Assembly (NCBI RefSeq): GCF_031755915.1
Contig: NC_083390.1
Coordinates: 26,609,001 to 26,673,000, forward strand
Reading direction: 5' to 3'
Length of the DNA stretch: 64,000 nt
Source: Ziziphus jujuba
Taxonomy: Eukaryota > Streptophyta > Magnoliopsida > Rosales > Rhamnaceae
How positions within the stretch are numbered: the stretch's first letter is position 1; every line of letters starts with the position of its first letter. Below are positions 5,299 to 63,616 of the stretch, piece after piece. Under the pieces are notes generated by a model. The model was not told where the DNA came from. It was given only the letters and a program-made list of their open reading frames with translations, and searched no databases. A program made the translations under genes and the position numbers.

Positions 5299-5829
5299 TG
5301 TCCCAAGCATTGGTGCCAAAGATCTGCCGATGCCTTTGCTGCACTTAAAGCATGATGCTTTACTTCATTCAGAACATACAGCTTTCCTTTCTTGTACTCT
5401 TTTGCAATGATTCTTTGATTACAGTCCTTTATCACAAAACCATTGGATGAGAATTCCAAAATACAATCATTATCTATTGTTAGTTGACTAACTGATAAGG
5501 GGTTCTTTTCAATTTTGGAACTACAAGAGCACTTTGAAGAGCTAAACATCCATTTTTAGTTTTAAGTTTAGCATTACTAATGTGAGATATTGCAAGGCTA
5601 TTCCCATTGCCGACATATATACTATCACTACCTTTATAAGGATAAGAATTAATTATTTTACCATTGTCATTTGTCATATGTGCAGTGGCACCCGAATCTA
5701 CATAGAAGTTTGGATCAGAGTTGTTTGCAATGTTAAGTGCTACTAGTGCTTCTGGGATGTTATCCTTGACATATGAATAATCAAACCTATGCCAGCAATC
5801 TATGGCATTATGGTTAAGTTTATCACATA
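5299..5829 (-). pseudogene. Copia protease/GAG-pre-integrase fragment (left arm)
   Basis: Read on the minus strand from 5,829 down to 5,299, this is the middle of a Ty1/Copia polyprotein. It has the protease motif FYVDSGATAH near 5,690, then VGNGNSLAISH, then the GAG-pre-integrase segment with KKGKLYVLNE, KHHALSA and DLWHQCLGH. A frame change near 5,540 separates the two open stretches (5,480-5,677 and 5,299-5,549). It is cut at 5,299 by Gypsy element 1 and at 5,829/5,830 by a CACTA end. The mirror copy is at 62,205-62,732 on the plus strand, and the left copy is better preserved around the protease. Confidence 0.9.
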
Positions 5830-8525
5830 CACTACAAAAAATTTGGGCAACTATTACACAGTAATTTGTCTTGTAACGGTCATTTTTGTTGCCTTATCAC
5901 ATTTAGGTGACAAAATTAGATCGTCTTGTGTTTGCCGTGATAGACCCATCACAACGTAGTTTAGTGATAAACTGTGTAATTTGTCATGGAAAGAGCATGT
6001 AATTGTGACAAAAAATATTTGACATAGACTGGAGTTTGACCGTAACATCCATTTTTGTCACTTAATCCTCCTCTTTTTGTCATTGTATGTACACATTTTG
6101 TTACCAATACAATTGTAGAAATTGGTCAAACTTATCTATCGATGACAATAAATACAATAGGTGACAAATAAAATATTATTTGTCACTTAAACCATAAGTG
6201 GCACATCTGATTTGTCATTTAAAATGTCGATGACACATCTGATTTGTCATTGAGCCTTTCCAATGACAAGTAAGCAAGTTTTTGTCACCGACTTGTTACG
6301 ATATAACATAAACCATGGTTAAGTTATTCAACCTGTCACTGAAACTAATTTTTTTATTTGGTGACAATAGTTTTGTAACTAAAAATAATATATCAATTAC
6401 CAATATTATTTGATAAAAATTGTTTTTGTTAGATCTTACTAATTAATTATAATATCATTAATTATCATTTAATTATCATTTAAAAATATAAAATGATACT
6501 TCTGAAATGCAATTAAAATAAAAGTATAATACTTTTATTAAATGTTTATCTTGTACTACAAAATTCATTAAACACCAATTAAATATAATGTGTACCAAAC
6601 ACAATAATATTACATTAAAAGGAAAATACAAACAAAAACAGTTTGTAATTCTAGGGGGAAAAAAAAAAAAAATATATATATATATAAGATGGTTGCCTAT
6701 ACCTACTAAATCTTTACAATCTCCATCTTCTAATGCAGGTCATCAATATATTCTCCAAGGATCCTATATTATAAACAAAAGGAAAGAAAAATGAATCATT
6801 TAGTAGAAATCTAATTTAATTAGCAAGGAGAAAAGAACAAGCTCAAGACTTCCTATGTTCCTATAAGTTGGCAATCCTTTACCAGCCAAGCATTCCCACC
6901 TCTTCTTCAATGTGGATCAATCTAAGCCCATTCCATTGGTCCTTTACCATTTCCAAAGGAATAATCATATTTAGCTATTACAGACAAACTGTGAAAGTTA
7001 TAGTTCATATTACTATATATGCACGTGAACATATATCTATGTACTATGCAAGGTGTACCAAATACAATAAGCTTACACTAAAAGGGAAAAAAAATAAAGA
7101 AAAAGTTTCTCTATTTCTGTGGTTAGGGGAGAACATGATTGTTGCCTATACCGTCTAACTAATGTCCATCTCCATCTTTCAAAGTAGCAATCATCTCCAA
7201 AGATCCTAAACAATAATAAAATAAAAATAAAAAAAGAATGAAATATATAGAGCATATATGATTGACCTTCTCCATTAATGATTTTTCTTCACCATATTCC
7301 TAAGACTCATTGAGCTAAACATACTCAAAGTATGACCTTTGTCAAAAATCATTCAAGGAAAAGAATTTACCGAAACCTAAAGGCATTTGCATTACAATTA
7401 GAAAGATTTAACACTGACTGTATTCAAGGCAGGTGCTACCATGACCTAAAATGCGAGCTAAGGACCAAAAAAGTGGACAAAAAGCTGCCAAAATCATGCA
7501 TGTTTACAGGGGTAAAGCCAACAGAGGTAACCACCCAAAATTAGTACCAACAACACCAAAATGAAGAGTTAAATTTTACATAAAATGGCACGCTAGTGTG
7601 ACACCACACCAAATTAAAGTGACACAGTGTAATATCATACTCCTATATAAAAAGCTTCTAGATACACCCAAGCAAAAAAATTAATGAAATAATCAACTTG
7701 AGGTTTAATATTCACTCATAGTAACCGCAACTACACATATAAGAGAGTTTTGCTCATGAACCATTTCTGTTGACAAGTTGCTGGCCTACTATAGCATCGT
7801 AACCTTCATATCATCTATGTTATTATCACTTAATTAAAAACTTTCAAAATTGCTTATAACATATATATATTAACTTTAAAAACTCTCAATCTTGTTTACC
7901 ACTGGCATCACTTATGCAGTGGTGTAATCTTAGAAAAAATCTCTGCTTAAAGCAAGAAGCTTCTGGACCTTAGTAATAGTTGAGCACTGCAAAGGCTTTA
8001 CTGATGGTCCATAAACCTTGGTAAGAAAACATTCATGGATTTATATGGAAAATAATAGTCCCAACTCACAACTCACAAATCCTATTACATATCCTCCAAC
8101 TACCTAGATACTGTGGATCACTTAAAACCAGAGTATGTCATCTATGCTATATCTCCACATAAAAACCGCAGTAAGAATCAAGGACCTAGTGTGTTTAGCT
8201 AAGACAAGAAAATTGCATGCTTATAACTTTTAATCGTTAATAACTCAACTCATCGGGATCAAAAAACAGATAACAAGCTAGCTAGCTCTTTTCTATCTCT
8301 CAGTTCACCATGGTCAATTACATCTAAAACTAAAAACATATATATATAGTCATGGTAAAGAAACGAATTGAGCTTGGAGAAACCAATAACAAAAGCGTAC
8401 AATATCATGCATCGAATACTATCGCATATAGTTGGTAGTAACCTAGAATGAAACATCCATTCTAATTCCAATGAGTAAATTTCAAGCCAATCTTGCTGCC
8501 TTTGAAAGATGGAGATGGACATTAG
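5830..8525 (-). mobile_element. Non-autonomous CACTA element, left-arm copy, inner end missing
   Basis: Starts with the CACTA-type terminus CACTACAAAAAATTTGGGC at 5,830, preceded by ATA, which matches the TAT target duplication of the mirror copy. The first 500 bases are packed with short direct and inverted copies of a GTGACAAA / TTTGTCAC motif, a typical subterminal region. The sequence matches the plus-strand element at 59,273-62,204 in reverse but keeps about 900 bases (7,330-8,250) that the right copy lacks. It stops at about 8,525, at GAAAGATGGAGATGGAC, where satellite sequence begins, so its second terminus is missing. No transposase is encoded. Confidence 0.85.
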
Positions 8526-12341: not shown

Positions 12342-12395
12342 TTATCGTTAGATGAACTGCATTGGTGATATTGACCCCAAAAAAGAAATACTGAG
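12342..12395 (-). pseudogene. psbF: Cytochrome b559 beta subunit 3' fragment (plastid origin)
   Basis: The last codons of psbF are visible on the minus strand: FLGSIS, then PMQFI, a premature TAA, Arg and the native stop at 12,342-12,344. The normal ending is AMQFIQR, so glutamine CAA has become TAA. The 5' two-thirds of the gene are missing because the insert ends here. It sits directly upstream of psbL, as in the plastid operon. Confidence 0.85.
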
Positions 12396-12800
12396 AAGTA
12401 AATTTTGTTTTATCACATTCCATTCAATGCTAGCTAGTGCACGGACTTTAGTGTATACCTTCATTTCAATATCATTACTACGTATAAATACAATTATATA
12501 TGTCTCACAATGATTTTCTTTTTTTTTGGTTAAAATGACTAATAATGAATTTGATATAGCTAATAAATTAAAAGCATATATTCATATGATCATGTGTCGG
12601 AAATCTAAATGCTGAATGCATGCATGCATGATTATATATATACACAAAAACATAAGTAAACCAATACAATATTAACTTAAATATAATATATACTAGCTAG
12701 CCAGCTTAATTATATAGTTACCCAATTTTTTTGGGACATTGGCTGTATTGTCCCATGCCACAATCCATTGAATCTGTCTTCTAGTATCATTCACGCCATC
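12396..12800 (-). pseudogene. JIP23-like gene fragment, 3' part of exon plus downstream
   Basis: On the minus strand, 12,800 down to about 12,728 encodes GVNDTRRQIQWIVAWDNTANVP and ends at a good splice donor (G|GTAACT). It is the continuation of the exon at 16,662-16,874. The 3.86-kb Gypsy element at 12,801 splits the two. The rest (12,396-12,727) is AT-rich sequence with RY-type CATGCATG motifs and a GCTAGCTAG landmark. It matches 57,610-57,910 in reverse, up to ATTCCATTCAACGCTAGC next to the plastid insert. Confidence 0.6.
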
Positions 12801-13664
12801 TGTTACAAACCTAGGTCAACTTGCTCCTAAACCCATATTATATTAGCCCGGATCGAAAAATTAAGTTCAAGTTCTTATGGTCACCTCAACCCTAATCAAC
12901 CTGTGACTAGAAACCTCGGTATATGACGAAGACACCATAATAGGTGATGGATATCCAACTAATAAGTCAAAACTAAAACACTCACTCTCTAATGGTGTCT
13001 TAGGTGTTCAAAGAGAACAAAGAGAATTCTTTCTCATAAGTATTTTCTGTAAAATAATAAAGGTGTATTCTCATTGAAAAAAGAGCCCTTAAATAGGCTA
13101 AATTCACAAAACAATAAACCCTAACTTGCTAGGTAAAATCCAGCCCAAAGGAATTAGGAAACAAATGTGGCCGAATTTTTCATGCTTTCCTAAACAAATT
13201 TGGATTAATTGATTCCCTTATTTTGAATTAGGAGTTAATTAATTTACAATTGAAATAATAAAATAATAACTTTCCTAAGTTAATTTTTCCAGTAGAAAAA
13301 TTAAATGAAACCAAATTGAAAAGCTAGTTTCCTAAAACAAAAAGTCAAACTCAAATTAGGATATTAGTTGACTAGTTTGACAACCAAGCTATCTTTGATC
13401 AATTTTCAGCTTGCAAAGGCTCCAAATCACCTCCCAAATGTTATGTAGGATGCCAAATAGGATTAATAATGATTTCCATACATTGCCCTTGATTGGAACA
13501 GAGACAAAATGCCAAATCAACAAAATACAGCAAAGCTAGCGGCAAACACAGCAAAATTGACCAACAATTCCTTCCATGCATAAATGGACTTCTTGGATGC
13601 TTTTGCTTCTGCCTTGACTTGATTCCATGACTTCTTAGTCATATCAAGTTAATTCAAGAAGTGT
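12801..13664 (-). repeat. 3' LTR of Gypsy element 3, truncated
   Basis: Aligns with the LTR at 15,544-16,656 from its TGTTAC end until GAATTCAAGAAGTGTTGAA at about 13,664, where sequence switches to the integrase C-terminal coding region. About 250 bp of LTR start and the polypurine tract are missing. The deletion therefore spans the LTR/pol boundary. Confidence 0.85.
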
Positions 13665-14340
13665 TGAAAAGGACTATCCCCGCGCAGCATAGGCTTGGAC
13701 TTTCTTTGCTTGGGAAACCTCTCCTTTCTTAAATGCAACCAAACCCAATCTCTAGGTTCAAAGACAACTTTAATCCGGCCTTGGCTAGCATTCCTTACAT
13801 ATTGCTCGGTCCTCCTCTCAATATTTGCCTTTTTCTTTTCATAAATCTGCTACACAAAATCAGTTTTTTCCTTGCCCTCTAGATTATCATGTTCACTTAG
13901 AGGTAAAGGTGTTAAATCTAATGGAATCAAAGGATCAAAACCATGAACAATCTCAAATGGCGTATATTTAGTAGCTGAATGCAAAGATCTATTATAACCA
14001 AATTCAACATGTGGCAAACATTCTTCTCATGTTCTTAAATTTTTACTAATAAAAGCCCTTAACAATGCAAACAAAGTCTTATTTGCTACTTCAGTTTGTG
14101 GACGACAAGTAGTTGAAAATAAAAATTTAGTTCCTAACTTAGCCCACAAAATTTTCCAAAAATAACTTAAGGACTTAGCATCCCTATTCGAAACAATAGT
14201 TCTAGGCATACCATGCAACCTCACAAGTTCGTTAAAGAATAAGTTAGCAGCATTATATGCATCACTAATTTTATAACATGCAATAAAATGTGCCATTTTA
14301 GAAAATCTATCCACTACAACAAAAATTGAATCCTTACGTG
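13665..14340 (-). pseudogene. Gypsy integrase fragment
   Basis: Minus-strand translation gives [20 protein letters not shown], then NAANLFFNELVRLHGMP and TIVSNRDAKSLSYFW, and the C-terminal [16 protein letters not shown] block near 13,730. The second catalytic aspartate position reads Asn (VSNRD for VSDRD), and the TDGQ segment before the catalytic Glu is deleted, so the enzyme would be dead even if expressed. The frame is open from 14,027 to about 14,340 and broken beyond. Confidence 0.85.
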
Positions 14341-15235
14341 GGATCGCTTCTCCAAACACTTGGATTGGTCCTCCCGCTGCTTGAAACACCTCCAAACCAT
14401 GAGCTTGTACCCCTCCTTTTGATTTGATTTTCAATATTGATAGCCACATGAAGCATTTCCTCCAATTCTACATATTGTTGAAACTCCACTTGGTTGGCTA
14501 TCTCGCGATTCAAACCACCCAAAAACCTTGCCATGGTTGTCTTATGATCCTTATTCATGCTCAATCTCATCATGAGCATCTCCACCTCCTTGTAATAATC
14601 CTCTATGGTCCTACTACCTTGTGATAATGATTGGAGTCTTTGATGCAGCAACCTATGATATTGGATCGGTACAAATCTCTTCCTCATGGCTCCTTTCATT
14701 TGTCGCCAAGTAGTAATCAATTTATCACCAACTCTCCTTCAGGTACTTTGCTCGTTTATCCACCATTGTAGTGCATAATGTCTAAACTCCAAAGCTGCCA
14801 ATTTAACCTTCTTAGCCTCCGAATAGTTATGACAATAGAATATCATCTCCATCCGCTCCTCCCACTGTAAGTAAGCCTCTGGATCACTCTTTCCCATGAA
14901 TGGTAGTATGCTAACCTTAATGTTTCCAAGGTTATCATCTTCTTCTCTAGCTCGTGTCTCATGGGTTGGCCTTCCTTGGAGTGCAAAAATATCATCCAAG
15001 TTTTCCTCTAGATTGTCTCCAAAATTATCTTCCTTAAATCCTACTCTAGGCCGACCATGACCTCCTCGTCCTTGACCTCAACCTCAATGTAATTCCACCT
15101 TTGGATTTGATCCACCTTGTGATGTTTCTAACCTATCCATCCTTTGAACTAGTTGATCAAAATGAGCATTCATCCTTTGAAGTTGTTCCAAGACTACCAT
15201 CATGTCGGTAGGATTTATGCAATATGCTTTCAAAC
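14341..15235 (-). pseudogene. Gypsy gag fragment
   Basis: Two open stretches (14,739-14,999 and 14,341-14,720) on the minus strand encode the capsid-like gag domain: IKVSILPFMGKSDPEAYLQW, HYALQWWINEQST, GAMRKRFVP, FLGGLNREIANQVE. The N-terminal part at 15,000-15,235 contains an EQLQRMNAHFDQL-like heptad segment and a damaged RG-rich stretch. The frame ends by fusion to integrase at 14,340, so the nucleocapsid zinc knuckle is absent. Confidence 0.85.
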
Positions 15236-15543
15236 TCCTCTTTTTTTTTCTTTTTCTTTATTTTGAATATATGAATGCAACTAATTAAGATTAAAATAGC
15301 AAATAAAAATCAACAATAAACCAAATCAATAAGAACAATGATGAAAAACAACTAACAAACTAGGAAGCAAATACGGTAAAACAAGGAAACCTAATTTGGC
15401 TCGAATATTTTTTTTTTTTAATGCAAAACATGTACAAACTAAGAAAAATCTTAACCTAATGCAAAAATCACAGATTAACATAAAAAAAAAATAAAAAAAA
15501 TAAGATAGATCAATCCTGAACAAAATTCGACTCATATACCAAA

Positions 15544-16656
15544 TGTTACGAACCTAGGTCGACATGCTCCAGATCGAAAAATTAAGTTCAAGTTCTTATG
15601 GTCGCCTCAATCCCTAATTAACCTATGACTAGAAACCTTGGTATATGATGAAGATGCCAAAATAGGTGATAGATGTTCTATTGATAAGTAAAAACTAAAA
15701 CACTCACTCTCTAATGGTGTTTTAGGTGTTGAAAGAAAACAAAGAGAATTCTTTCTCACCAGTATTTTATATTAAATATTTAAGGTGCATTCTCATTGAA
15801 AAATCATCACTTAAATAGCCTAAAGTTACAAAATAATAAACCCTAACTTGCTAGGTAAAATTCGGCCCCAAAGAAATTAGGAAACAAAGGTGGCCGAATT
15901 TTTAATGCTTTCCTAAACTAATTTGGATTAATTCATTCCCTTATTTTGAATTAGAAATTAATTAATTTACAATTGAAATAATAAAAAAATAACTTTCTTG
16001 AGTTAATTTTTCCAGCAAAATAATTAAATAAAACCAAAATAAAAGCTAGTTTCCTAAAACAAAAAGTCAAACTCAAATTAGGAAACTAGTTGACTATTTT
16101 GACAACTAAGCTATCTTTAACCAACTTTCAGCTTGTAAAGGCTCCAAATCACCTCCCATATGCCATGGATGATGCCAAATAGGATTAATAATGATTCTCA
16201 TATGTTGCCCTTGATTGGAGCAAAGAGAAAATGCCAAATCAAAAAAAAAAAAACAAAGCCAACAGCAAATACAGCAAAACATGCCAACAATTCCTTCCAT
16301 GCACAAATGGCCTTCTTGGATGCTTTTGCTTCTGCCTGGACTTGATTCCATGACCTCTTAGTTATATCAAGTGAATTCAAGAAGTGCTGAACCTATTCCG
16401 TGCTGCCCGGAGTCCATAAATGCAGTAAAACAACTACTCGGGTCCAACTCGGCCTCCACCATTGGATGCATAAAACAAGTCTTGTATCTTCGGATATGGA
16501 TAAACCCTTTTGTGAATTGATAACTCCCTATATGAATCCAGCCAGGTTGTCTTTAAATCTCTTAGCTTGTGCTCTGGTGATTGGCCCGGTCTTCATCTGT
16601 ATTGGATTGGTACCCAGCAGGTAGTCGCTTGTATGGGCACAGATGGATTCTCATCA
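15544..16656 (-). repeat. 5' LTR of Gypsy element 3
   Basis: About 1,113 bp, beginning TGATGAGAATCC at 16,656 (minus strand) and ending GGTTCGTAACA at 15,544. It shares the conserved 3' part of the family (TTCAATGAGAAT and TCTTTGTTT segments) but has a different U3. The priming site next to it, TGGTATATGAG (just below 15,544), is a poor match to initiator tRNA-Met. Confidence 0.88.
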
Positions 16657-16661
16657 CAATC

Positions 16662-16874
16662 ACAGACGAAGCCCCCTGATGAGTGAGCAAGTGATTCATC
16701 AGTGCTAAGATGAAGAAATGAATGCCGCTCTCCAATGCCAACATTTGGTGGGTATGGAACATTTCCAGTGCCACCGGACCAATCATAGTGTTGGCCCTTA
16801 TACTTGATAATCTGTCTAGTGCCATTGAAAATTTGGCCAGGCGTGGACAGACCACCAGTGACCATGCCTTGGAT
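16662..16874 (-). pseudogene. JIP23-like gene exon, 5' part, interrupted by Gypsy element
   Basis: Minus strand, starting after a plausible acceptor (GCTAGCAG at 16,875-16,882). The translation runs through GLSTPGQIFNGTRQIIKYKG, HYDWSGGTGNVPYPPNVGIG and FLHLSTDESLAHSSGGFVCD, and joins GVNDTRRQIQWIVAWDN at 12,800. The order of a Y/F-N-x-T segment, HDW-x-G, PYP, a W/F-x-FLH segment and W-x-xAWxN resembles the plant 23-kDa jasmonate-induced protein-like family. This is recognition from memory, not a search result. Of the four copies in the window this is the only one with an uninterrupted frame apart from the transposon. Confidence 0.5.
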
Positions 16875-16977
16875 CTGCTAGCTTAGTTACTATATTCTTA
16901 CGTACGTACCAATGAAAATAGCTCAATTGTTCATTGCCTGTCAAAACTACATATCTATATATACATATCTACATATA

Positions 16978-17000
16978 CATATATATATATATATGCATAT
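16978..17000. repeat. AT microsatellite
   Basis: An (AT)n run next to other TATATACATA sequence. On the minus strand it lies upstream of the gene fragment at 16,874. Confidence 0.9.
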
Positions 17001-17038
17001 ATAGGAATTTTGTGCTAGTGTCACGCATCGCACATGAG

Positions 17039-17066
17039 TTAGGCACGTGACATATAGCTATAAATA
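17039..17066 (-). promoter_or_regulatory. G-box-like site upstream of gene fragment
   Basis: CACGTG at about 17,045-17,050, roughly 170 bases upstream (minus strand) of the JIP23-like exon start, with a TATTTATAG-like AT box nearby. G-boxes are bound by bHLH and bZIP factors, including those of jasmonate responses. The right-arm copy near 57,168 reads CATGTG and has lost the core. Functional meaning is speculative, since the site is probably intronic or proximal to a pseudogene. Confidence 0.25.
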
Positions 17067-17111
17067 AGTAGAAGCACAAGTAATTGGGCATTAATTACTG
17101 TATCAATATCT

Positions 17112-17112
<1 letters not shown>

Positions 17113-17137
<25 letters not shown>
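17113..17137. repeat. AC microsatellite
   Basis: About 12 AC units in TTACACACAC...ACAAACACAC. The mirror position in the right arm (near 57,090-57,110) has only TATATATATA, so the AC run arose or expanded in this arm. Confidence 0.9.
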
Positions 17138-17144
<7 letters not shown>

Positions 17145-17159
17145 ATATATATTTTTGTA

Positions 17160-20325: not shown

Positions 20326-20344
20326 TATTTTTAAATTATGTTAA

Positions 20345-22283: not shown

Positions 22284-22389
22284 GCTAGCTTAGTTACCAT
22301 ATTTTTAAGTACGTACCAAGAAAGTAGCTTAATGTGTATGCTCACAAATAAAAATTTCCGTGAAAATTTCCACACCTACCATACATCAT

Positions 22390-23600: not shown

Positions 23601-23639
23601 ATGTAGATCAATATATATTTTGCATTTTAATGCCTTAAA

Positions 23640-47459: not shown

Positions 47460-47589
47460 TTAGTGAACCCAGTACGGCTGATGATAAAAAACGGAAGAAA
47501 TATCAATGATATGTGCTCGTTGACGGTGGCAAAGGTGAAAGAAAGTAGAAACCCAGAAACGCAACTAACCTAACCATTCAACTCTTCTT
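47460..47589. other. Short unassigned stretch before the satellite array
   Basis: About 130 bases of mixed composition (GTACGGCTGATGATAAAAAA region) between the Gypsy LTR and the first satellite unit. Nothing recognised. Confidence 0.4.
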
Positions 47590-50500: not shown

Positions 50501-52800
50501 TAATTTTGTCAAGCTCTTATTAATGTAAAAAAATATTTTATTTAAAATTGAAAAACAAATAAATTACACGAATAAATTAATTATTTTTCTACATATCGCT
50601 AATTAATATACTTAATATTTATATGTATATGAATAAAACTTAAAATTAAATAAGATTCAAACAATTAAAACAATAGGCAATGCTTTTGATGTTAAAAGTG
50701 TTACCTAATTCTTTTAAATTATAAAATAATTAATCTTGTTAAAATTCATTAATTTTAAAAATAATTAATTTAAAATTGAAACACAAATAAATTAATTACA
50801 TAGATTAAGTATTTTGATTTATGTTGCTGATTAATATATTTAATATTTATATGCATATGAATAAACTTAAAATTAAATAAAATTTTAAGAATTAAGACAA
50901 TAGGCAATGCTTTTGATGTTAAAAGCGTCGTCCAATGCTTTTTAATTATAAAATATCTAATTTTGTCAAGCTCTTATTAATGTAAAAAAATATTTTATTT
51001 AAAATTGAAAAAAAACAATTACACGAATAAATTAATTATTTTTCTACATATCGCTAATTAATATACTTAATATTTATATGTATATGAATAAAACTTAAAA
51101 TTAAATAAAATTCAAACAATTAAAACAATAGGCAATGCTTTTGATGTTAAAAGTGTTGCCTAATTCTTTTAAATTATAAAATAATTAATCTTGTTAAAAT
51201 TCATTAATTTTAAAAATAATTAATTTAAAATTGAAACACAAATAAATTAATTTAATAGATCAATTATTTTGTTTCATATTGCTATTTAATATACTTAATA
51301 TTTATATAAATAATATTAAAGCATAAAATTAATTAAAATACTAAAAGTTAACACAACAGATTATGCTTTTGATGCTAAAAGCATTGTCTGGTGCTTTTAA
51401 ACTTTAAAATAATTAAATTTATTAAATTTTTTATTAATTTAAAATTGTAACACAAATTAACTGAAGGCATAGATTAATTTTTTTTTTCATGCTGTTAATT
51501 AATATATTTAATATATATATATATATATATGAATAAAATATAAAATTAAATAAAATTTAAAAAATCGAGAGAATAGGCGATACGTTTTATGCTAAAAGCG
51601 TCGTCTAATACTTTTAAATTTTAAAATAATTAATTTTGCCAAAATTTTCTTAATCTAAAAAAATAATTAATTTATAAATTAAACACAAATAAATTAAATG
51701 GATATATAAGTATTTTATTTCATTTTTCTAATTAATATATTTAATATTTATATACATAATAATAAAAAATAAAATTAATACAACAGGCGATACTATTGAT
51801 GCTCAAAGCATCACCTGATAGTTTTCAATTTTAAAATAATTAAATTTATCAAATTTTTTTATTAATTTAACAAATTATTGATTTAAAATTAAAACACAAT
51901 CAAATTCGATGCATAGATTAATTATATTGCGTCATATTGATAATTAATATATTTAATATATATATACATATGAATAAAATATAAAATTATATAAAATTCC
52001 AAGATTTAAGATAATAGACAATGCTTTAGATGTTAAAAAGATCGTCTAATACTTTTAACTTATTTAATTTTGTCAAGCTTTTATTAATTCAAAAAATATT
52101 TTATTCAAAATTGAAAAACAAATAAATTATATGAATACATTAATTGTTTTACTTCATATTGCTATATAATATATTTAACATTTATATAAATATGAATAAA
52201 AGATATAATTAATTAAAATTTCAAAAATTAAGACAGCAGATGGCGCTTTTGATGTTAAAAGTATTGCCTAATCCTTTTAAATTATAAAGTAATTAATCTT
52301 GTCAAAATTTTATTATTTTAAAAAAGAATTAATTTAAAATTATAAAAAAAAATTAATTAAATGGATAGATTAATTACTTTGCTTCAGATTGCTATTTAAT
52401 ATGCTTAATCTTTATATACATAATATTAAAACATGAAATTTATTAAAATACTAAAACTTAATAGAATGGGCTATGCTTTTGAAATAGTTAAACTTATGAA
52501 ACTTTATAACAATTTAAAAAATCATTAATTTAAAATTTAAACACAATTAAATTAAATGCATATATTAATTATTTTGCTCCTTATTGCTAATTAATTTATT
52601 GAATATTTATATGCATATGATTAAAACATAAAATGAAATAAAATTTCAAAAATTAAGACAATAGGCGATGTACTTGATGTTAAAAGCGTCGCTTAATGCT
52701 TTTCAATTTTAAAGCAATCAAACTTCTCAAACTTTATTTTAATTTAAAAAATCATTAATTTGAATTAAAACACAAATAAATTAAATCCATAATTTAATTA
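47590..52800 (+). repeat. Tandem satellite array, about 23 units of 225-240 bp
   Basis: Head-to-tail units with the order: AATAGGCAATGC core, hairpin GCTTTT-GATGTT-AAAAGC, TTTTAAATTATAAAATAATTAA, TCTTATTAATTTAAAAAATA, ACACAAATAAATTAAATG, TTAATTATTTTGCTTCATAT, TTAATATATTTAATATTTAT, and ATGAATAAAACATAAAATTA. Cores occur near 47,695, 47,930, 48,155, 48,290, 48,488, 48,720, 48,893, 49,130, 49,330, 49,560, 49,795, 50,000, 50,220, 50,445, 50,672, 50,905, 51,130, 51,358, 51,578, 51,785, 52,013, 52,240, 52,470 and 52,665. Units vary and some are shortened. In good units the arms extend to GGCGATGCTTTT and AAAAGCGTCGCC. No open frames are supported. Confidence 0.9.
50343..51250 (+). repeat. Recent two-unit higher-order duplication in the satellite
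   Basis: The segment 50,343-50,795 is nearly identical to 50,796-51,250, each about 455 bp and made of two dissimilar monomers. This is much higher similarity than between adjacent monomers, so a dimer was duplicated recently. Confidence 0.88.
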
Positions 52801-52899
52801 TTTTGCTACGCTTATGTATGTAAATAATTTAAGGCATTAAAATGCAAAATATATATTGATCTACATATATATCATGTGTGTACCATTGTGTGGCAATGT

Positions 52900-54100
52900 T
52901 AAAAATTTTAGTAACGATAAAAATAAGGAGGGCTCAAAATATAGAAATATCTATAAAAATGATCAAATATCAAGAAACATAAATTAAAAAAATGATGGAA
53001 ATTGACAGAAATTTATTTAAAAAATAAAATTTTTATTGAAAATTTAAATTTAGCTTATTTAATTAATTAATTAATTAATTATCAAATTGACTATTAAAAT
53101 TGTAAAAATATTTAATAGATATTATATTACTTCTAATCAATTAATTAATAATAAGCGTTAATAGTTAAAAATATACTATTATTAATTAAAAAAATGCAAA
53201 AGTGCATATTTAATAAAATTATTTATTAATTAAGGTATAAAAAAATTACATTATATTTTATAAATGTCATTTCAATACGATAAATAACTCCTGAGTGGTT
53301 GAGAATTGTTTCTATCTTCTTTATTCTCATTTTAAAATGTAAAATGTATGAAGTAATAATTAAAAGATGTAATTTCTTGATAATTTTGCATGTAGTTACT
53401 AATACACCATCGATATGAATATTTGAAAGTTAAGTTTACATATATCAAATATCATTAATACCAAAATTTTGAACCTTGATTTACAAAAAATATATTTCTT
53501 GTATATCTTTCAATTTTTGTCTATGTTATAATTTTTATCTACTTTGTAATATTTATCTACTATGTAATATTTATAAGAATATTAAATTTATTATTGTAAA
53601 AAAAATAAATAAATAGGAAAATTTGTAACTTGTAATACTAATTTTCCTTAAGAATATGATAGGTAGAATTGTCTAATGTAATTTTTGAATATTATTTGTT
53701 AAATGTGAAATTTTTTATTTTTATTTACCTAATTATTAGAAGACAATTAAAAGTTAATGTTGCAAAAAGTTTTACTAACTATCAATAATATTTATAAAAA
53801 TTTATGAAAAAAAAAGTAATGAAAATTCATAGATATTTTCAAAATTTGTATGGAAATTTATGAAAATTTCAAGGACATTTTGAAAATATCCTTGGAAATT
53901 ATGGATTTTTTACCAAATTATGAAAGATTTGATATTGATATTATGATAAAAATTCCTATGAAAATTATGAAGAAATATCATAAATTTTGGTGGATATTGT
54001 GGAAATTATATCTGTTTCTACTTGAAAGCTAAATTTTCTTCCAATGTTCTTAAAAAAAAGAAATTTCATGGAAATTTTAAGAAAAAACTATGATGTATGG
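52900..54100 (+). mobile_element. Old hAT-like non-autonomous element, right copy
   Basis: Reverse counterpart of 22,390-23,600, rich in GGAAATTTNTGAAAATTTC motifs. The 5' part aligns segment by segment with the hAT-like element at 25,154 (CTCAAAATA, GCTTATTTAATTAATT, AATAAGCGTTAATAG, CTCCTGAGTGGTTGAGAAT). The coding remnant is absent. Ends are not sharply defined. Confidence 0.55.
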
Positions 54101-54236
54101 TAGGTGTGGAAATTTTGCTGAAATGAATTAATTACCCAACCCAACCACTGAGGCCGAATCCAAAGTTTTTTATTTGTGAGCATATACATTAAGCTATTTT
54201 CTTGGTGCATACTGAAAAATATAGTAACTAAGCTAG
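54101..54236. other. Arm sequence before gene fragment, right copy 2
   Basis: Mirror of 22,285-22,390, including ATGATGTATGGTAGGTGTGG and the intron-like region before the exon. Confidence 0.6.
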
Positions 54237-54525
54237 CATATCCAAGGCATGGCCACTCGCGGTCTGTTCACATCTGACCAAATTTTCAATAGCACTAGAC
54301 AACTTATAATGTATAATGGGCAGTGCCATGATTGCTCCGATGGCACTGAAGATGTTCCATACCCACCAGATGTTAGCATTGGAAAGCGACGTTCTCAACG
54401 TTGATTAATCATTTCCTCATTCATCATGGAGCTTCATCTATGATGGCGTGAATGATAATAGAAGACCGATTCAATGGATTGTGGCATGCGACAATATAGT
54501 CAATGTCCCAAAAAATCAAATAACT
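54237..54525 (+). pseudogene. JIP23-like gene fragment, right copy 2
   Basis: Plus strand. MATRGLFTSDQIFNSTRQLI, MYNGQCHDCSDGTEDVPYPP, DVSIGKRRSQR and a stop, after which the frame is lost by small deletions. Later RPIQWIVACDNIVNVP is visible. It is the mirror of 21,990-22,283 and shares its HDW-to-HDC and AWD-to-ACD changes, so these changes predate the arm duplication. Confidence 0.5.
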
Positions 54526-56160
54526 ATATAATTAAGCTAGCTAGCTAGTATATATTATATTTAAGTTAATATTGTATTGGTTTACTTCTCTGTCTATCTA
54601 TATATATATATATATATAATTATGCATGCATGCAATTAGCATTTAGATTTATGGTCACATGATGATATGAATATATGCTATTAGTTTTATGGTCTTTCAA
54701 ATGAAATATTATGAAATTGTGCTATCCTTTGGTTTGCGAATATTTTGAGAACCAATTTTTTTTACATATGTTACCAGGGGCGGAACCTTTAGGGCAAAGA
54801 TTTAAAAAAAAAAAAAAAATTTACAATAAAAAATTGTAATATACAACATTTGATCATAATGAAAAATAAAAATAAAAGCCATATATTTTAAATTTAACAA
54901 AACTATATAAAAAGTACATGTAATAAATATAATAAATTATTTAAAATAATTTTCCAATTTTTCTTTTTAGTTTTATAAATAACTTATCATTTTATTTTTT
55001 TATAGATTATTTTTTTTTTGTTGAATAACAAAGATGCATAATTCATAGTTGTTGAACTGCGGTACGTACGTACATAATTGATATTTTAGTAAGAGTTATA
55101 TTATTTTAGTATATTTTTATTCACAATATATATTTTTTTGTTTAAAAATAATATAAAATATTATATGAGATTGAATCAGTTAATAAAGTACTTAGATCTA
55201 TAACTTAGAAGTTCTAAATTTAAAATAGTGAACTAAGAAGAAATATTATTTTAAATAGTTAAAAGAAACACAGTGTAAGACCAAAGAAAATTTCAATATA
55301 TTTCTTGGACACCTTACACGCATGCACTCCACTGCTCCTCTGGCACTCCATAATTTAATGCCATGTGTATTATTTTTTTTGTCCATGTTGTTGATGTCAT
55401 GCACAGTGACATCATATACCAATTGGAAGCTAAGTTGCTCATGGTAAACATAAAAGAAGTACTAAAGAGTTTGCAGTCCTCTATAGCACACAAAAATTTT
55501 TCGATTTAATTAATCTTAATATAATATTTTATTAGCTAATTTGTCGATGCAACTATCTCAAAAACTTATATTGAGTAATTAAATTATTTAATCATGCAAT
55601 CATCAATTGAAAAAGTAATGTATCTAATTTTAGATATGAAAATAATAATAATAAAAAAATAAATAAATAAAATATATCTTTTGTATGTTTTTTCTTTGTT
55701 AACAAAGATGTATAGATCATTATTAGTAATGTTTTGTTGAATAATAGAGATGCATAATTTTTAGTTCTTGAACTGCGGTATGTATGTATGTAATTAATAT
55801 TTCATTAAATTAAATAATATATATTATTTTTAATATATTTTTATTCATAATATATATATTTATTTATTTAAAATAGTATAAAATGTTAAACAAAATTGAT
55901 TCGATAAATCATTTATATTTATAATTTAAAGATTATAAATTTGAAATATGAGAATGAAGGAGAAAATATTATAAATAGTTAAAAGGAACACAGTGTGAGA
56001 TAGGAGAAAATTATAACATATTTTCTTGGACACTACTCACCACACCTCATATGTATGCACTCCACTGCTCTTGGCACTCCATAATTTTAACATATTTTCT
56101 TGGATGCTACTCACGACACCTCACATGCATGCATGCCACAGCTCCTTTGACACTAATTTT
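54526..56160. other. Arm sequence downstream of gene fragment, right copy 2
   Basis: Mirror of 20,345-21,989. AT-rich, with (AT)n at about 54,599-54,620, AAT and TATG microsatellites near 55,640 and 55,780, and CATGCATG-containing blocks near 55,320. No genes. Confidence 0.6.
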
Positions 56161-57313
56161 AACATAATTTTAAATTAATTTTTTAATTTAATTAATTTTA
56201 GTATCATATTTTATTAGCTAGTTTGTTGATGCAACCATCTTGAAAACTTATACAAAGTAATTAAATTGTTTTACCATGCACCCGTCACCTCAAAAAGTAT
56301 TGCATCTAATTTCAGATATGAAAACAAAAAAAATTTATCCAAAATGAAATATATCTTCTGTACATTTTTTATAGTTGGTTCTTTGTTAAGAAAGATGTAT
56401 AGATCATTTTTTTTTTTAATAATAAAGATGTATAATTTATAGTTGCCGAAACAACATATGTATGTATATAATTGATATTCTAGTAAGAAAAATATTATTT
56501 TAGTATATCTTTATTTATAGTATGTGTAATCTTTGTTTAGAAAGAATATAAAATGCCATGATATGCATATTATCATAGCCTTTTATATCAACTTTATCTT
56601 ATACTGAGGCTGCCTAGCTAATACAGTAATAATTAATATATATGTACATATGTTACTATTATAGTTTATGATATGTTAACTCTTTCATTATATGGTATAG
56701 TCTTTCAAATAAAATATTAGTAAATTATATTATAATTTGGTCTGCAAATATTTAGAGAACCAATTCTTCCTATGTATGTAGCCAGGTTTCAGAGCCTTAT
56801 AGGCCAAGATTAATTTTTTTTTAAAAAAAATTACAACAAAAAATTGTAGAATACAACATTTGATCGTAAGGAAAAATAAAAATAAAAACCATATATTTTA
56901 AATTTAACAAAACTATATAAAAAATACATGTAATAAACATAATAACCTATTTAAAATAATGGAAAACTTTTTTATTGTAAATTTAAACTATGATGTATGG
57001 TAGGTGTGGAAATTTTGCTGCAATGAATTAATTACCCCACCTAGCTACTGGGCTGGATCCAGAATTTTCTATTTGTAAGCACATACATTAGTATATATAT
57101 ATATAAGATATTGATATAGTAATTAATGCTCAAGTACTTGTGCTTCCACTTATTTAGAGCTATATGTCATGTGCCTAACTCATGCTCAATATGTGACATT
57201 AGCACAAATTTTGTATATATATCTATATATATGTAGATATGTAGTTTTGACAAACAATGAACACTTGAGATTTTCTTTTTTGGTACGTACTAAAAAATAT
57301 AGTAACTAAGTTA
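56161..57313. other. Arm sequence upstream of gene fragment, right copy 1
   Basis: Mirror of 16,880-17,864. Repeated CATGCATG block at 56,020-56,150, poly-T/AT stretches and the CTATATGTCATGTGCC segment that corresponds to the G-box region at 17,045. No genes. Confidence 0.6.
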
Positions 57314-57606
57314 GCATATCCAAGGCATAGCCACTCGCAGTCTGTTCACGTCTGATCAAATTTTCAATGACATTAAACAGCTTATAAGTATAATGGGCAG
57401 CACCATGATTGATTTGGTGGCATTGAAAATGTTCCATACCCACCAAATGTTAGCATTGGAGAGCGACATTCGTTTCTTCATCTCAGCATTGACGAATCAC
57501 TTGCACATTCATCAGGAGCTTTGTCTATCATGGCGTGAATGATAACGGAAGACCGATTCAATGGATTGTGGCATGGGACAATACAACCAATGTCCCAAAA
57601 AATCAA
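57314..57606 (+). pseudogene. JIP23-like gene fragment, right copy 1
   Basis: Plus-strand counterpart of the split exon at 16,662-16,874 plus 12,728-12,800, without the Gypsy insertion. Traces are VPYPPNVSIGERHSFLHLSI, DESLAHSSG and RPIQWIVAWDNTTNVP, ending at a retained donor (A|GTAACT). It has lost one or more bases around 57,385, shifting the first third, and the start Met reads ATA. It keeps the AWDN tryptophan. Confidence 0.5.
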
Positions 57607-58277
57607 GTAACTATATAATTGGGCTAGCTAGCGAGTATAGTTTATATTGAAGTTAATATTGTACTGGTTTACTTCTCTATCTGTCTCTATATATATAATC
57701 ATATGTGCATGCATTTAGCATTTAGATTTTAACATATGATCGTATGAATATATGCTACTAGTTTTATCAAATTCATTATTAGTCATTTTAACCCAAAATA
57801 ATAATAGTAATTGTGAGACATATATAATTGTATACGTACTTATGATATTGAAATGTAGATATACACTGAAGTTCGTGCACCAGCTAGCGTTGAATGGAAT
57901 GTGATAAAACAAAATCTACCTCTAAATCGAAACTCTAATAGCTATGATAGATACTTAGCCCATGTATCGAATACTGATGGCAATTTCCTTGAAATTTGTA
58001 ATAAAAAAGAAGAGAAGTCAAACACAGACATATTCACTGCATCCATTGCATCAACATCATTCACTGCTATGATTGCTCAATCATCAAAGAAGCAACTTTA
58101 ACTTTCTAAGTCAATAGATTTCTCATATGGCAAGACTTACAAGATTTCCATTGAAAGAAAATGCCTTTAAGACATAAGTTGATCTCTTTTAATGTTTTTG
58201 AATTTCGTTTAATATAGGAAGATGTTAATTAGCTTCCTTATTGATCATAGCTTCCTTCTTTGCTCAAAACTGCACCT

Positions 58278-58358
58278 CTATAAATTCTCTTCATTCTATA
58301 AACCTAACATACAAGAAATAATACACACGGTTGGTAACCTTCTTCATGGTATTAGAGC
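58278..58358 (+). promoter_or_regulatory. Copia LTR promoter and primer binding site
   Basis: TATAAATTCTC at about 58,279 is a plausible TATA box, followed by a short transcribed LTR part ending at 58,346 and directly by the tRNA-Met priming site TGGTATTAGAGC. Confidence 0.7.
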
Positions 58359-58381
58359 ATTATTCCGCACATATCACTATT

Positions 58382-59272
58382 ATGGAATCTCAAAATGAAT
58401 TTTCTTCGCAACCAAATACTAGCACCAGAGCTTTCATTCCACAAGAACCCATCATAACCGCTTAATCTTTTCACCAGTGTACCAATTTGATTTTAGTCAA
58501 ATTGAATGCCTCAAACTTTCTCCTTTGGCATTTACAAATCATTCCATTAGTGAGAAGTCTTGGAATATATCATCATGTCACTAACGGTGAACCACCATAT
58601 GAAGTTTTACATGATGAAAAGGAAGTCCTTACTATAAATCCAAACCACAATGCATGGATTAATAATGATGGGTTGTTGACAACCTGGCTGCTTTGTATTA
58701 TGTCCAATGAAATTCCAAGTTTGAATGTAGGTATTGATAGTGCATTTCTGCTATAGAAATCCTTAGAAGACCAGCTGTTACCATCAACAAAAGAACAAGA
58801 ACATGTTCTTAAGGACAAACTTGCTTCACTTAAGAAAAGAGGTCTTTCAATGGATGAATACTTGAAAAAATTCAAACAAGTGTGTGACAATCTTGCTACC
58901 AATAATGCTCCAGTTTCAAACGTAGATAAGGTGTTTTCATTTGCTCGAGGGCTTGTCATAATTATAAGGATTTTAGAGTTGCCATGCTGGCATAACCACC
59001 TTGCACGTTGTTCAATTAGTTCATTTTTGCGTTACAAAGTCACAGCCACAGGTTGGAAATTGAAGATGAAGAACATGACAATAATCAAACTTATTTTGGA
59101 CTATGTGGCCATGGAAGAAGTCGTAGAGCTCGTGGTGGTGGCTATTTCAATTCAAAAGGAAAAGGCTTTACACTAGTAGGGAATTTCACTGAAACCAAGA
59201 AACCAAAAATCAAAACCAATGTTGAAGGCAATTATAGACAAAATAGTGAAGGTAAAATTATTTGTCGAATAT
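58382..59272 (+). pseudogene. Copia gag with zinc-knuckle start, broken by CACTA insertion
   Basis: ATG at 58,382 (MESQNEFSSQPNTSTRAF), an early TAA near 58,463, then KLNASNFLLWHLQIIPLVRS, the gag N-terminal motif, and a TAG at 58,754-58,756 where a tryptophan is expected. KDKLASLKKRGLSMDEYLKK follows, then a frame change near 58,950 and, in the new frame, LEIEDEEHDNNQTYFGLCGH and a GRSRRARGGG basic stretch. The CCHC knuckle begins at 59,250 (GKIICRI) and continues only at 62,205 after the insertion, as FDKLNHSAIDC. Confidence 0.85.
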
Positions 59273-62204
59273 CACTACAAAAAATCTAGGCAATGACTAC
59301 AAAAATCCTAGTGACAAAAGAAAATTTATCACTTTACATAGGCAATTAGTGACAAAAATTTTCTCTATCATGTTTAGTGATTGGGTCATTTAATTAGTGA
59401 TAATCACCTTCTTTTGTAACTAATTGCCCTTTAAAGTTTGAAGGGAAATTTTTTTTGAATATATTTGATGTTAATAGTGACAAAATTTTATATTTGTAAC
59501 TAATTTAAAATATTAGGTGTCACAGATAACTTTAGATACTACTGTGACAAATAAAAACTAGTTAATTTATATAGACGATTAGTGACAAAAATTTTCTTTG
59601 TCACATTTAATGATTGGATCATTTAATTAGTGATAAATTCTTACTTTGTCATCTAAATTTGTAACTAATTGCCCTTTGAAGGCAATCTTTTTTTGAATTT
59701 ATTTGATGTCAATGGTGAATAAAATTTTACATTTGTAACTAATTTTACTAAATAGATAACGCTGACAAAGATATTGGATGTCACAGATAACTTTAGATAC
59801 TACTATGACAAATGAAAACTTGTCGGTTTATATAGGTGATTAGTGGGAACAATTTTCGTTATTACATTTAATGATTGGGTTATTTAATTAGTAATAAATT
59901 CTTACTTTGTCACCTATATTTGTAACTAATTGCTCTTTGGAGGGAAATTTTTTTTAATTTATTTGATGACAATGGTGACAAATATTTTTTGTAACTAATT
60001 TTAATATAAATATAAAATAAAGGATACCTCCCTCGATGAAGCTTTCTTCTTCCCCAACTAGCAGCCTCGATGCTTTACAAAACCCATGTAGGCCGAACTT
60101 CCATTGGAAAATCGCTCTACTCTTGATACCGATCCACCACACCACCACCTCAGCCACCAAGCCCAGTCTAGCAGTGACCGAACCACGGTGAGAATACTCT
60201 AAATGACTACCCGATGCATTGGGGAAGACTGAACACAAGCGATCACTATTTTAGTTTGATTGCTGGAAATTAGTGGTTCTAAGATCTTAGGGCCTACATT
60301 TTCCACCATTATTAGACTATTGAGCTCAAATCGAAGCTTAGATTGGCTTCAAATTAGCTCATTTGCAAAGTATGAAGGAATCTACTTTGACAACAAATTT
60401 AAAGCAAAGTCTACGGTCATCGGTAGCTATCGTTGAGCAAATAAAGGTCATAAAGTTGTTATTCCCTTCACAAGCTTCACTTTGGTATATAGTTTGTCCA
60501 TTATTGTTGGTTATTTAAGAATTTTCCTTTTTAGAACTATGATTTTTCTTGGAATTAGAATGGAAGTTTCACTCAAGGATACTGCCAACTATATATGATA
60601 GTATTCGATGCATGATATTGTATGCTTTTGTTATTGGTTTTCTCCAAGCTCAATTCATTTCTTTACCATGACTATATATATATATGTTGTTAGTTCTAGA
60701 TGTGATCGACCAAATGTAATTGAGTATGTTTAGCTCAATGATTCTGAGGAACATGGTGAAGAAACATCATTAATGAAGAAGGTCAATTATATATGCTCTA
60801 TATATTTCATTCATTTTTTTTTTTTATTTAGGATCCTTGGAGATGATTGCTACTTTGAAAGATGGAGATGGACATTAGTTAGACGGTATAGGCAGCAATC
60901 ATGTTTTTTCCCCCCCTAGAAATAGAGAATGTTTTTTGTTATTTTTTTCCTTTTAGTGTAAGCTTATTGTATTTGGTACACCTTGCATAGTATATTTATA
61001 TATATATATATATATATATTTAAGTGCGTATATAGTAATATGAGCTGTAACTTTCACATTGTGTTTGTAATAGCTAAATATGATTATTCCTTTGGAAAAA
61101 GTAAAGGACCAAAGGAATGAGGTCAGATTGACCCACATCGAAGAAGAGGTGGGAATGCTTGGCAGGTAAAGGATTGCCAACTTATACGAAGTTAAGAAGT
61201 CTTAAGCTTGTTGTTTTCTCCTTGCTAATTAAATTAGATTTCTATTAAATGACTCTTTTTCTTTTTTTTTAATAATATAGGATCCTTGGAGAATATATTG
61301 ATGAACTGCATTGGACGATGGAGATTGTAAAGATTTAGTGGGTATAGGCAACCATCTTGTATATATATATATGTATTCTTTTTCCCTAGAATTACGAACT
61401 GTTTTCGTTTATATTTTTCTTTTAATGTAATCTTATTGTATTTGGTACACATTATATTAGTATTAGTTGGTCCTTAATGAATTTTGTAGTACAAGATAAA
61501 CATTTAATAAAGTATTATTCTTTTATGTTAACTGCATTTCAAAAGTGTTATTTTATATCTGTAAATGATAATTAATGATATTATAATTAATTAGTAAGAT
61601 CTAATAAAAAACATCTTTTTCAAATAAAATTGGTAATTGATATAATATTTTTAGTTACAAAACTGTTGTCACCAAATAAAAAAGGTAGTTTCGGTGACAA
61701 ATTGAATAACTTAACCATGGTTTATGTCATATCATAACAAGTCGGTGACAAAAAGTTGTTAACTTATCATTGGAAAGGCTCAATGACAAATCAAATTTGT
61801 TATTGACGTTTTAAGTTACAAATCAGATGTGTCACTGATGGTTTACGTGATAAATAATATTTTGTCGCCTAACTATATGTATTCTTATTGATGGATAAGC
61901 TTGACCAATTCTTACAACTGTATTGGTAATAAAATGTGTACATACAATGACAAAAAGAGGAGGGTTAAATGACAAAAACCGATGTGATGGTAAAGCTCCA
62001 ATCTATGACAAAGATATTTTTTGTCATAATTACATGCTCTTTCGATGACAAATTACATAGTTTACCATTAAACTGCTTTGTGACTGGTCTATCACAGCAA
62101 ACACAAGACGATCTAATTTTGCCACCTAAATGTAATAAGGTGACAAAAATGGCCCTTACGTGACAAATTAGTTGTGTAGTTGTTGCCCAAATTTTTTTAT
62201 AGTG
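59273..62204 (+). mobile_element. Non-autonomous CACTA element, complete, 2.93 kb
   Basis: Left end CACTACAAAAAATCTAGGC, right end GCCCAAATTTTTTTATAGTG, with a perfect 3-bp target duplication TAT at 59,270-59,272 and 62,205-62,207. This is the diagnostic 3-bp duplication of CACTA elements. Removing the element and one TAT restores a continuous Copia zinc-knuckle region. The first 700 bases hold three tandem units of about 240-250 bp (landmarks near 59,395, 59,630 and 59,885), and the last 500 bases are dense in TTTGTCAC/GTGACAAA motifs. There is no transposase; one possible captured fragment lies at 60,037-60,190. Confidence 0.93.
59290..60000 (+). repeat. Tandem subterminal units in CACTA element
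   Basis: Three diverged units of about 240-250 bp, each with GTGACAAAAATTTTC, CATTTAATTAGTGATAA, TTGTAACTAATTGCC, TTTGATGTNAATNGTGA and ACAGATAACTTTAGATAC. Two such units survive in the left arm at 19,790-20,310. Confidence 0.85.
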
Positions 62205-63616
62205 TATTTGATAAACTTAATCATAGTGCCATAGATTGCTAGTATAGATTTGATCATTCATATATCAAAGATAACATCCCAAAAACACTAGCAACACTCA
62301 ACATTGCAAACAACTCCAATCCACTTCTATGTAGATTCGGGTGCCACTGCACACATGATAAATGACAATGGTAAAATAAGTAATTCTTATCCTTGTGAAG
62401 GTAGATAGTATATATGTCGGCAAAGGGAATAGCCTTGCAATATCTCACATTGGTAATGCTAAACTAAAAACTGAAAATGGATGTTTAGATCTTCAAAATG
62501 ATCTTGTAGTTACAGAATTGAAAAAGAACCTCTTATGAATTAGTTAACTAATAACAGATAATGATTGTATTTTTGAATTCTCATCTAATGGTTTTATGAT
62601 AAAGGACTACAATCAAAGAATCATAGCAATAGGGTATAAGAAGGGAAAGCTGTACATTCTGAATGAAGGAAAGCATCATGCTTTAAGTGCAACAAACCCC
62701 TCGACAAATCTTTGGCACCAACGCTTAGGACATCCTAGTTTAAGGGCTTTAAAAAGTTTACATTCCAATAACGTTATTACTGTTTTCAGCTGGATAAATA
62801 AGTTTAGTGTTTGTACTAGTTGTTAATTAGGGAAGAGCTGCAAACTTCCTTTTTCTTTATCTAATAAAATTTCATTGTTTCTTGTAGAAAAGATCCATTG
62901 TGATATTTGGGAGCCTCAACATTTTCCACATAAAAATACCGTTTCTATGTTGCTTTCATTGATGATTATTCTAGGTACACTTGGCTATTTCCTTTGCATA
63001 AAGAATTAGAATGTTTTGAATGTTTCGAATGTTTCCTTAAATTTCAAAGAATAGAAGAGAACCAATTCGACAAATGAATTAAAATTCTTCAGAGTGATGG
63101 AAGAGGTAAGTTTATATCTTCAGCTTTCAATGAACACTTAGGTAAGCATGGAATTGTTCATCAAATGTCATGTCCAGGAACCTCAGAACAAAATGGGGTT
63201 GCTGAAAGGAAACATAGGCATGTGGTGGAAATGGGTTTAACTATGATGCTCCATGCCAATGTACCCATGAAATTATGGGTGGAAGCTTTCTTAACTACAA
63301 CTTTTCTCATTAATAGATTACATTCATCTGTTTTAAAAACTAAAACCCAATATTTTCTTCTACTTAAAAGGCATCAAGATTATCAATGTTTGAGAGTCTT
63401 TGGTTGCATGTGCTACCCTTATCTTTAGAATTATGCAGTAAATAAATTTTCAAAGAAAACTCTTCCTTGCATCTTCATTGGATACAGCTCCTAACATAAA
63501 GGATTCTGCTGTTTTCATCCAACAACCGATCGGGTTTGCATCAATAGGCATGTTGGTTTTTATGAACAATGTTTTCCATAGTTATCTACCAATATTAACT
63601 CACAAAAACATCTTGA
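62205..63616 (+). pseudogene. Copia protease to integrase, broken
   Basis: Resumes with FDKLNHSAIDC, a TAG, YRFDHSY, then the protease motif FYVDSGATAHMINDNG in another frame (about 62,325-62,375). GAG-pre-integrase follows (IKDYNQRIIAIGYKKGKLYI, HHALSA, NLWHQRLGHPSLRALKSL; 62,596-62,826). The integrase first half (62,830-63,160) has many frame changes. The second half is open at 63,165-63,428 with GTSEQNGVAERKHRHVVEMG (the catalytic Glu region), WVEAFLTTTFLINRLHSS and RVFGCMCYPYL. It ends at the CACTA-like terminus at 63,617, before RT. Confidence 0.88.

What the first reader, a model, noticed from the sequence alone, without database searches (positions are those of the whole stretch)
5299..62732. 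A giant, old palindrome fills almost the whole window
Seven consecutive blocks are mirrored around a spacer at 34,945-35,508, with arms of about 29 and 27 kb including later insertions. Similarity is well below identity, and both arms have separate later insertions, so this cannot be a mirrored assembly duplicate. Palindromes this large are unstable in most genomes. This one may have been stabilised by divergence and by insertions that break the symmetry. I do not know of a described plant element with this set of contents. It could be a chromosomal inverted duplication or a composite unit.
Basis: seen in the sequence. Interest (0 to 1): 0.9.

Follow-up and report, generated by a model that had tools for sequence, protein, structure and literature searches.

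The report
Old inverted duplication in plant DNA
A stretch of what looks like plant chromosome, holding broken gene copies and mobile elements, was copied once in reverse orientation and has since drifted about 10 percent apart and filled with later insertions, which makes it a real but fairly ordinary relic rather than a new kind of element.

Summary
The mirrored layout is real: ten matched pieces run strictly antiparallel around a 572-bp spacer, 34,941-35,512. But only 10.7 of 29.6 kb (left) and 10.3 of 27.2 kb (right) is mirrored.

The pieces look like plant DNA: a Copia element with a CACTA transposon in its gag, tandem pseudogenes resembling 23-kDa jasmonate-induced protein (name recalled), a hAT-like element, a 228-bp satellite and a non-coding block. 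Three junctions are shared by both arms: the CACTA end in Copia with the same TAT flank, both edges of the hAT-like element, and the edge of the satellite. So the arms descend from one ancestral segment. Ungapped identity is 90.3%. Two left-arm insertions in block E, one Ty3 and one hAT-like, have empty sites opposite.

Best reading: an old inverted segmental duplication, decaying.

Corrections: a later Ty3 insertion sets the left edge, so 5299/62732 are not shown to be the palindrome's ends; block B is older and its copies may be paralogues; the left arm has a second CACTA piece; the satellite-to-E link is not shared. A false inverted join of homoeologous contigs cannot be excluded without reads. 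All 11 genome searches did not complete.

The parts
34941..35512 (.). central spacer, 572 bp, not mirrored
   Evidence: arms stop at 34940 and 35513; the spacer matches the rest of the window only by short low-complexity pieces
5299..8471 (-). left arm block A: Copia protease/pre-integrase part (5299-5829) and the 3' half of a CACTA element from 5830; mate of 60549-62732. 7329-8310 has no match on the right
   Evidence: gag_pre-integrs E 0.0023 (below cut-off) on ORF 5256-5555
60549..62732 (+). right arm block A: part of CACTA 59273-62204 and the Copia stretch after it
   Evidence: gag_pre-integrs E 7.5e-15 on ORF 62548-62823
59273..62204 (+). CACTA element in Copia gag; ends CACTACAAAAAA and (1 mismatch) TTTTTTATAGTG, flanking TAT on both sides
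   Evidence: left copy ends at 5830 with ATA outside it. The end motif alone is not rarer than chance (28 found, 25 expected)
58347..63425 (+). right-arm Copia: PBS-like TGGTATTAGAGC at 58347, gag ORF 58757-59173, pre-integrase 62548-62823, integrase ORF 63078-63425
   Evidence: Retrotrans_gag E 0.003 and rve E 0.0052 are both below Pfam cut-offs; the PBS reading is recalled
12394..17528 (-). B_left, pseudogene resembling 23-kDa jasmonate-induced protein, split by Ty3 element T3 (12801-16656)
   Evidence: Pfam Nakanori PF21230: 4.2e-06, 27.2 bits against a cut-off of 27 for a hand-spliced read; mates 57530-57923 and 56696-57526
56696..57970 (+). B_right, related pseudogene; frame is broken
20303..24410 (-). 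left block C: spacer repeats, gene remnant B2_left (about 21797-22333), hAT-like insertion (22387-23573), edge of the satellite at 23658
52053..56198 (+). right block C: end of the satellite (edge near 52808), hAT-like insertion (52894-54092), B2_right (about 54188-54711), spacer repeats
17862..20318 (.). second, truncated CACTA piece, left arm only; 0.060 from the outer left copy, 0.103 from the right copy
47588..52807 (.). 228-bp satellite array, right arm; left counterpart 23659-24422
24531..34940 (+). left block E (24531-25147, 26886-28939, 34824-34940), carrying hAT-like insertion F (25154-26883) and Ty3 element T2 (28940-34823)
35513..38425 (-). right block E, with single empty sites for F and T2
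28940..34823 (+). Ty3 element T2; 5-bp target duplication CTCCG/CCCCG; empty site at 35616-35620
   Evidence: LTR divergence 0.033
1..5298 (+). Ty3 element T1, begins outside the window; interrupts the left arm

Best explanation
An old inverted segmental duplication of what looks like a plant nuclear locus. Before the event the locus held a tandem array of genes resembling 23-kDa jasmonate-induced protein, a hAT-like element beside one of them, a 228-bp satellite at its edge, and nearby a Copia element carrying a CACTA element. The segment was then present twice in opposite orientation around a 572-bp spacer (shown as the present state; the route, such as fold-back repair, chromatid fusion, template switching, or direct duplication followed by inversion, is inferred and undecided). 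Since then the arms have drifted apart by point changes, and each arm received its own Ty3, hAT-like, satellite and plastid-DNA changes. No function is shown; most likely it is a decaying relic.
For: Antiparallel order of 10 of 10 pieces. Same CACTA end at the same base of Copia with the same TAT/ATA flank in both arms. hAT-like insertion with both edges at the same bases in both arms, with an imperfect 8-bp duplication (6 of 8 right, 7 of 8 left). Gene/satellite edge shared. B2_left/B2_right pair together, 23 informative sites against 4 and 1. Transversions in A, C and E are compatible with one date (3.63, 3.06, 3.77%; p=0.29). Empty sites in right E opposite T2 and F. T2 LTRs differ by only 0.033.
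Against: Total divergence is not uniform: K2P 0.076 in C, about 0.10 in E, about 0.12 in A, 0.14-0.165 in B; non-CG/CHG differences reject homogeneity of A, C and E (p=0.001), with C low, so partial conversion or more than one event is possible. B mates look paralogous. The satellite|E junction is not shared, so E is tied to the rest only by order and divergence. T3 LTRs differ by 0.121, no less than the arms, although T3 is absent opposite; if B_left is a paralogue, T3 says nothing on order. No other copy or species was examined.
Confidence: 0.74

Rival explanations
1. A false inverted join: contigs from two homoeologous or strongly diverged haplotype copies of one locus were joined head to head in the assembly.
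For: It would also give about 10% divergence, shared nested insertions and copy-specific insertions; no reads or ploidy data are at hand.
Against: The window has no N and the centre is not itself an obvious repeat. The left arm's extra CACTA piece and the possibly paralogous B mates need further events in either case.
Confidence: 0.13
2. Two copies of one large composite mobile element inserted near each other in opposite orientation.
For: Much of each arm is transposon or satellite sequence.
Against: No terminal repeat, LTR end or target duplication was recognised at the inner ends 34940/35513. The arms include gene remnants and nested insertions of unrelated families at identical bases.
Confidence: 0.06
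3. Chance or independent accumulation: gene copies in both orientations that later caught the same transposon families.
For: B_left and B_right are about as old as the B/B2 split, so part of the mirror may come from an older gene array.
Against: The same CACTA end base and flank, both hAT-like edges and the satellite edge are shared; order is 10 of 10.
Confidence: 0.04

Closest known systems
Palindromes W.P1 and W.P2 of the willow (Salix purpurea) W chromosome (PMC7023750; passages seen)
   Same: Plant inverted repeats of similar size (W.P1 about 42.7 kb with a kb-scale spacer), gene copies in the arms, LTR elements in the wider palindromic region, arm-specific insertions and deletions.
   Different: Those arms are over 99% identical on average (96-99% for arms 3b/4b) and discussed with gene conversion; here 90.3% ungapped, with no conserved reading frames seen. 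Sex linkage could not be tested here.
Inverted segmental duplications in general
   Same: Two inverted copies of one chromosomal segment with shared nested elements.
   Different: Nothing beyond age and decay; identity is at the usual 90% limit (limit recalled).
Transposon-made rearrangements in maize by alternative transposition (PMC9910405, PMC3744419, PMC8225341; search listing only)
   Same: One known route to duplications and inversions in plants.
   Different: No pair of transposon ends was found at the duplication's inner boundary here, so this route is neither shown nor excluded.
Mu killer of maize (PMC3440606; search listing and abstract start)
   Same: A natural inverted duplication of transposon sequence.
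   Different: Mu killer is transcribed into hairpin RNA; no transcription data here, and T2 now separates the inner stems.

Membership tests
Inverted segmental duplication | two copies in opposite orientation, collinear | tested here: met
Inverted segmental duplication | copies share older nested insertions at the same base | tested here: met
   CACTA end, both hAT-like edges, satellite edge
Inverted segmental duplication | at least 1 kb at about 90% identity or more | tested here: inconclusive
   90.3% ungapped over 9,620 sites; blastn with gaps 79-93% per piece
Inverted segmental duplication | both copies on one molecule in reads | not testable with these tools
   no reads
Gene-conversion-maintained palindrome (willow W, human Y type) | arm identity above about 99% | tested here: not met
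   200-site windows of A, C and E3 range 83.0-95.5%
Gene-conversion-maintained palindrome (willow W, human Y type) | intact genes in arms | tested here: not met
   gene remnants are frameshifted, stopped, truncated or split; only the B and B2 remnants were examined
CACTA element (59273-62204) | CACTA terminal inverted repeats and 3-bp target duplication | tested here: met
CACTA element (59273-62204) | CACTA transposase | tested here: not met
   no transposase family among hits for the chosen ORFs of A1; so non-autonomous at most
hAT superfamily (F and F') | 8-bp target duplication and short terminal inverted repeats | tested here: inconclusive
   6 of 8 (F), 6 or 7 of 8 (F'); CAAGGTT/AACCTTG ends of F, weak ends of F'
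hAT superfamily (F and F') | hAT transposase domain | tested here: not met
   no Pfam hit for the joined ORFs of F
23-kDa jasmonate-induced protein-like gene (B, B2) | Nakanori-like domain (link to that protein recalled) | tested here: inconclusive
   B_left spliced read 27.2 bits against 27.0; another spliced read no hit; 1 of 5 single ORFs weak hit; no homologue in the protein search

The most novel reading that the evidence does not exclude
The palindrome is, or was, a hairpin-RNA locus: read-through over the spacer would make long double-stranded RNA from blocks E to A, giving small RNAs against the jasmonate-induced-protein-like genes and the Copia, CACTA and hAT-like families elsewhere, with the 5.9-kb T2 insertion 117 bp from the inner end of the left arm later disabling the loop.
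Probability: 0.06. Interest if true: 0.6.

Novelty: new member of a known kind. Interest (0 to 1): 0.3.

Why it matters
It is a dated example of what becomes of a large plant inverted duplication without recent homogenisation between its arms: order and nested insertion sites persist at about 10% divergence while only about a third of each span still pairs. With reads and a relative's genome it could show how long such structures last and by which insertions and deletions they decay. It does not reveal a new kind of element.

Tried and rejected
So copy number, chromosome and species are unknown.

Giant LTR or terminal-repeat transposon: looked for ends at 34940/35513 by reading the sequence; none recognised.

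B as a clean mirror pair: weakened. A simple later tandem duplication of the left arm to explain the second CACTA piece: CACTA copies differ by 0.060, but the flanking C0_left differs from C_left by 0.187, so one event does not explain both.

Link of the 228-bp satellite to the CACTA-like end at 63617: no convincing match. Coding content of block E: no convincing Pfam hit among the E ORFs placed in A1 (A1 held 64 of the 158 ORFs of 50 codons or more listed outside the masked repeats). Solved-structure search of one spliced gene read: only a chance-level hit, E 0.57. Family scan of the F ORFs: nothing.

Papers: seven searches. Passages of one paper seen (PMC7023750); all others listing only. 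In these searches I saw no report of this locus, but the species is unknown, so that says little.

Full report
Observation. Self-comparison gives an antiparallel series of ten pieces around 34,941-35,512. It is not chance: 20 simulated windows gave one inverted hit of 80 bp or more in total, and none of 200,000 random orders of the pieces was collinear (the pieces of one block are not independent). The spans are 29,642 and 27,220 bases, but mirrored sequence is 10,693 and 10,336 bases, 36% and 38%. The many other inverted matches are between Ty3 copies or between satellite units.

What the pieces are. Outer block A is Copia coding sequence plus a CACTA element. On the right the element runs 59273-62204 inside a gag region, flanked by TAT on both sides. 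The end motif alone is not rarer than chance (28 found, 25 expected); the case rests on two proper ends, the flanking duplication and the interrupted Copia frames. Block B and part of C (B2) are gene remnants: a hand-spliced B_left read reaches the Pfam Nakanori cut-off narrowly (27.2 against 27.0 bits), another spliced read does not match, and one of five single ORFs gives a weak match. The name 23-kDa jasmonate-induced protein is recalled from the motif pattern and comes from no call. C also holds a hAT-like insertion, F', and ends at a 228-bp satellite. E is non-coding as far as tested. The plant origin rests on psbJ-related plastid DNA and on the element types.

One origin for both arms. 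The CACTA end sits at the same base of Copia in both arms with the same three-base flank (TAT, read as ATA at 5827-5829 on the left). Both edges of F' are shared (right 52894-54092, left 22387-23573), with an imperfect 8-bp duplication. The satellite edge is shared (23658 and about 52808). Such shared nested junctions are what duplication of one segment predicts, and independent insertion does not. E is tied in only by order and by similar divergence, because the satellite|E junction differs.

Divergence. Summed over pieces, 9,620 ungapped sites are 90.3% identical, K2P 0.105. By piece, K2P is 0.119 for Copia and for the main CACTA stretch, 0.086 for the short CACTA piece, 0.138 and 0.165 for B, 0.155 for C0, 0.076 for C and 0.102-0.111 for E. 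Transversions alone do not separate A, C and E (p=0.29) but do separate B (p=0.0035 for the four). Differences outside CG and CHG sites still leave C lower (p=0.001), so an earlier conversion in C or a higher mutation rate in the outer elements remains possible. In 200-site windows identity ranges from 83.0 to 95.5% in A, C and E3, with no near-identical tract. With recalled rates of 0.7-1.3e-8 per site per year, K 0.105 would mean roughly 4-7.5 million years; this is only a rough guide.

After the duplication. In left E, Ty3 element T2 (28940-34823; target duplication CTCCG/CCCCG; LTR divergence 0.033) and hAT-like F (25154-26883; CTTGCACA/CATGCATA) face single empty sites on the right. T3 in B_left (CCATC/CAATC) also faces an empty site, but its LTRs differ by 0.121, no less than the arms, and B_left may be a paralogue, so T3 does not date anything firmly. 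T4 with a Copia-like remnant lies between right E and the satellite, and T1 cuts the left arm at 5298.

Complications. B_left is 0.175 from B_right and 0.182-0.201 from B2, while B2_left and B2_right are 0.071 apart; the quartet count 23:4:1 joins the two B2 copies but does not by itself make B_left and B_right mirror mates. A second CACTA piece, 17862-20318, is 0.060 from the outer left copy and 0.103 from the right one, so it arose, or was converted, within the left arm. Left 8472-12393 (satellite pieces, solo LTR, plastid DNA) stands where the right arm has the rest of the CACTA element, Copia gag and LTR; its history is unresolved.

Mechanism. Shown: inverted arms, shared older insertions, private younger insertions, divergence. 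Inferred: a single inverted segmental duplication; the route (fold-back repair, chromatid fusion, template switch, or direct duplication and inversion) cannot be told from the window. No element ends were recognised at the centre. The main rival is a false inverted join of diverged contigs; reads over the centre would settle it.

Compared with the known. The nearest published case seen is the willow W palindromes, with arms mostly above 99% identity (passages of PMC7023750). This one resembles them in layout but fails the high-identity and intact-gene features, so I file it as an old inverted segmental duplication, a new member of a known kind.

Noticed in passing
11823-12100: Plastid-derived DNA: psbJ 3' UTR (Rfam RF04338, 83.7 bits) and a PsbJ reading frame (Pfam PsbJ, E 1.3e-18 best), in the left arm only.
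   Followed up: partly
9133-10106: Solo Ty3 LTR in satellite sequence with a CTTTT target duplication.
   Followed up: partly
63617-64000: CACTACTAGAAA at the point where the right-arm Copia frames stop: possible start of another CACTA-like element running out of the window; the motif is weak evidence and also occurs at 426-437.
   Followed up: partly
39088-39432: Reading frame on the minus strand that looks like Copia RNase H (recalled; no Pfam hit), between right block E and the truncated Ty3 element at 41400-47459.
   Followed up: no
17862-20318: Internal CACTA piece lacking both ends, joined directly to block C; closest to the outer left copy.
   Followed up: partly
10120-11155: About 1 kb of sequence within satellite with no match elsewhere in the window; nature unknown.
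   Followed up: no
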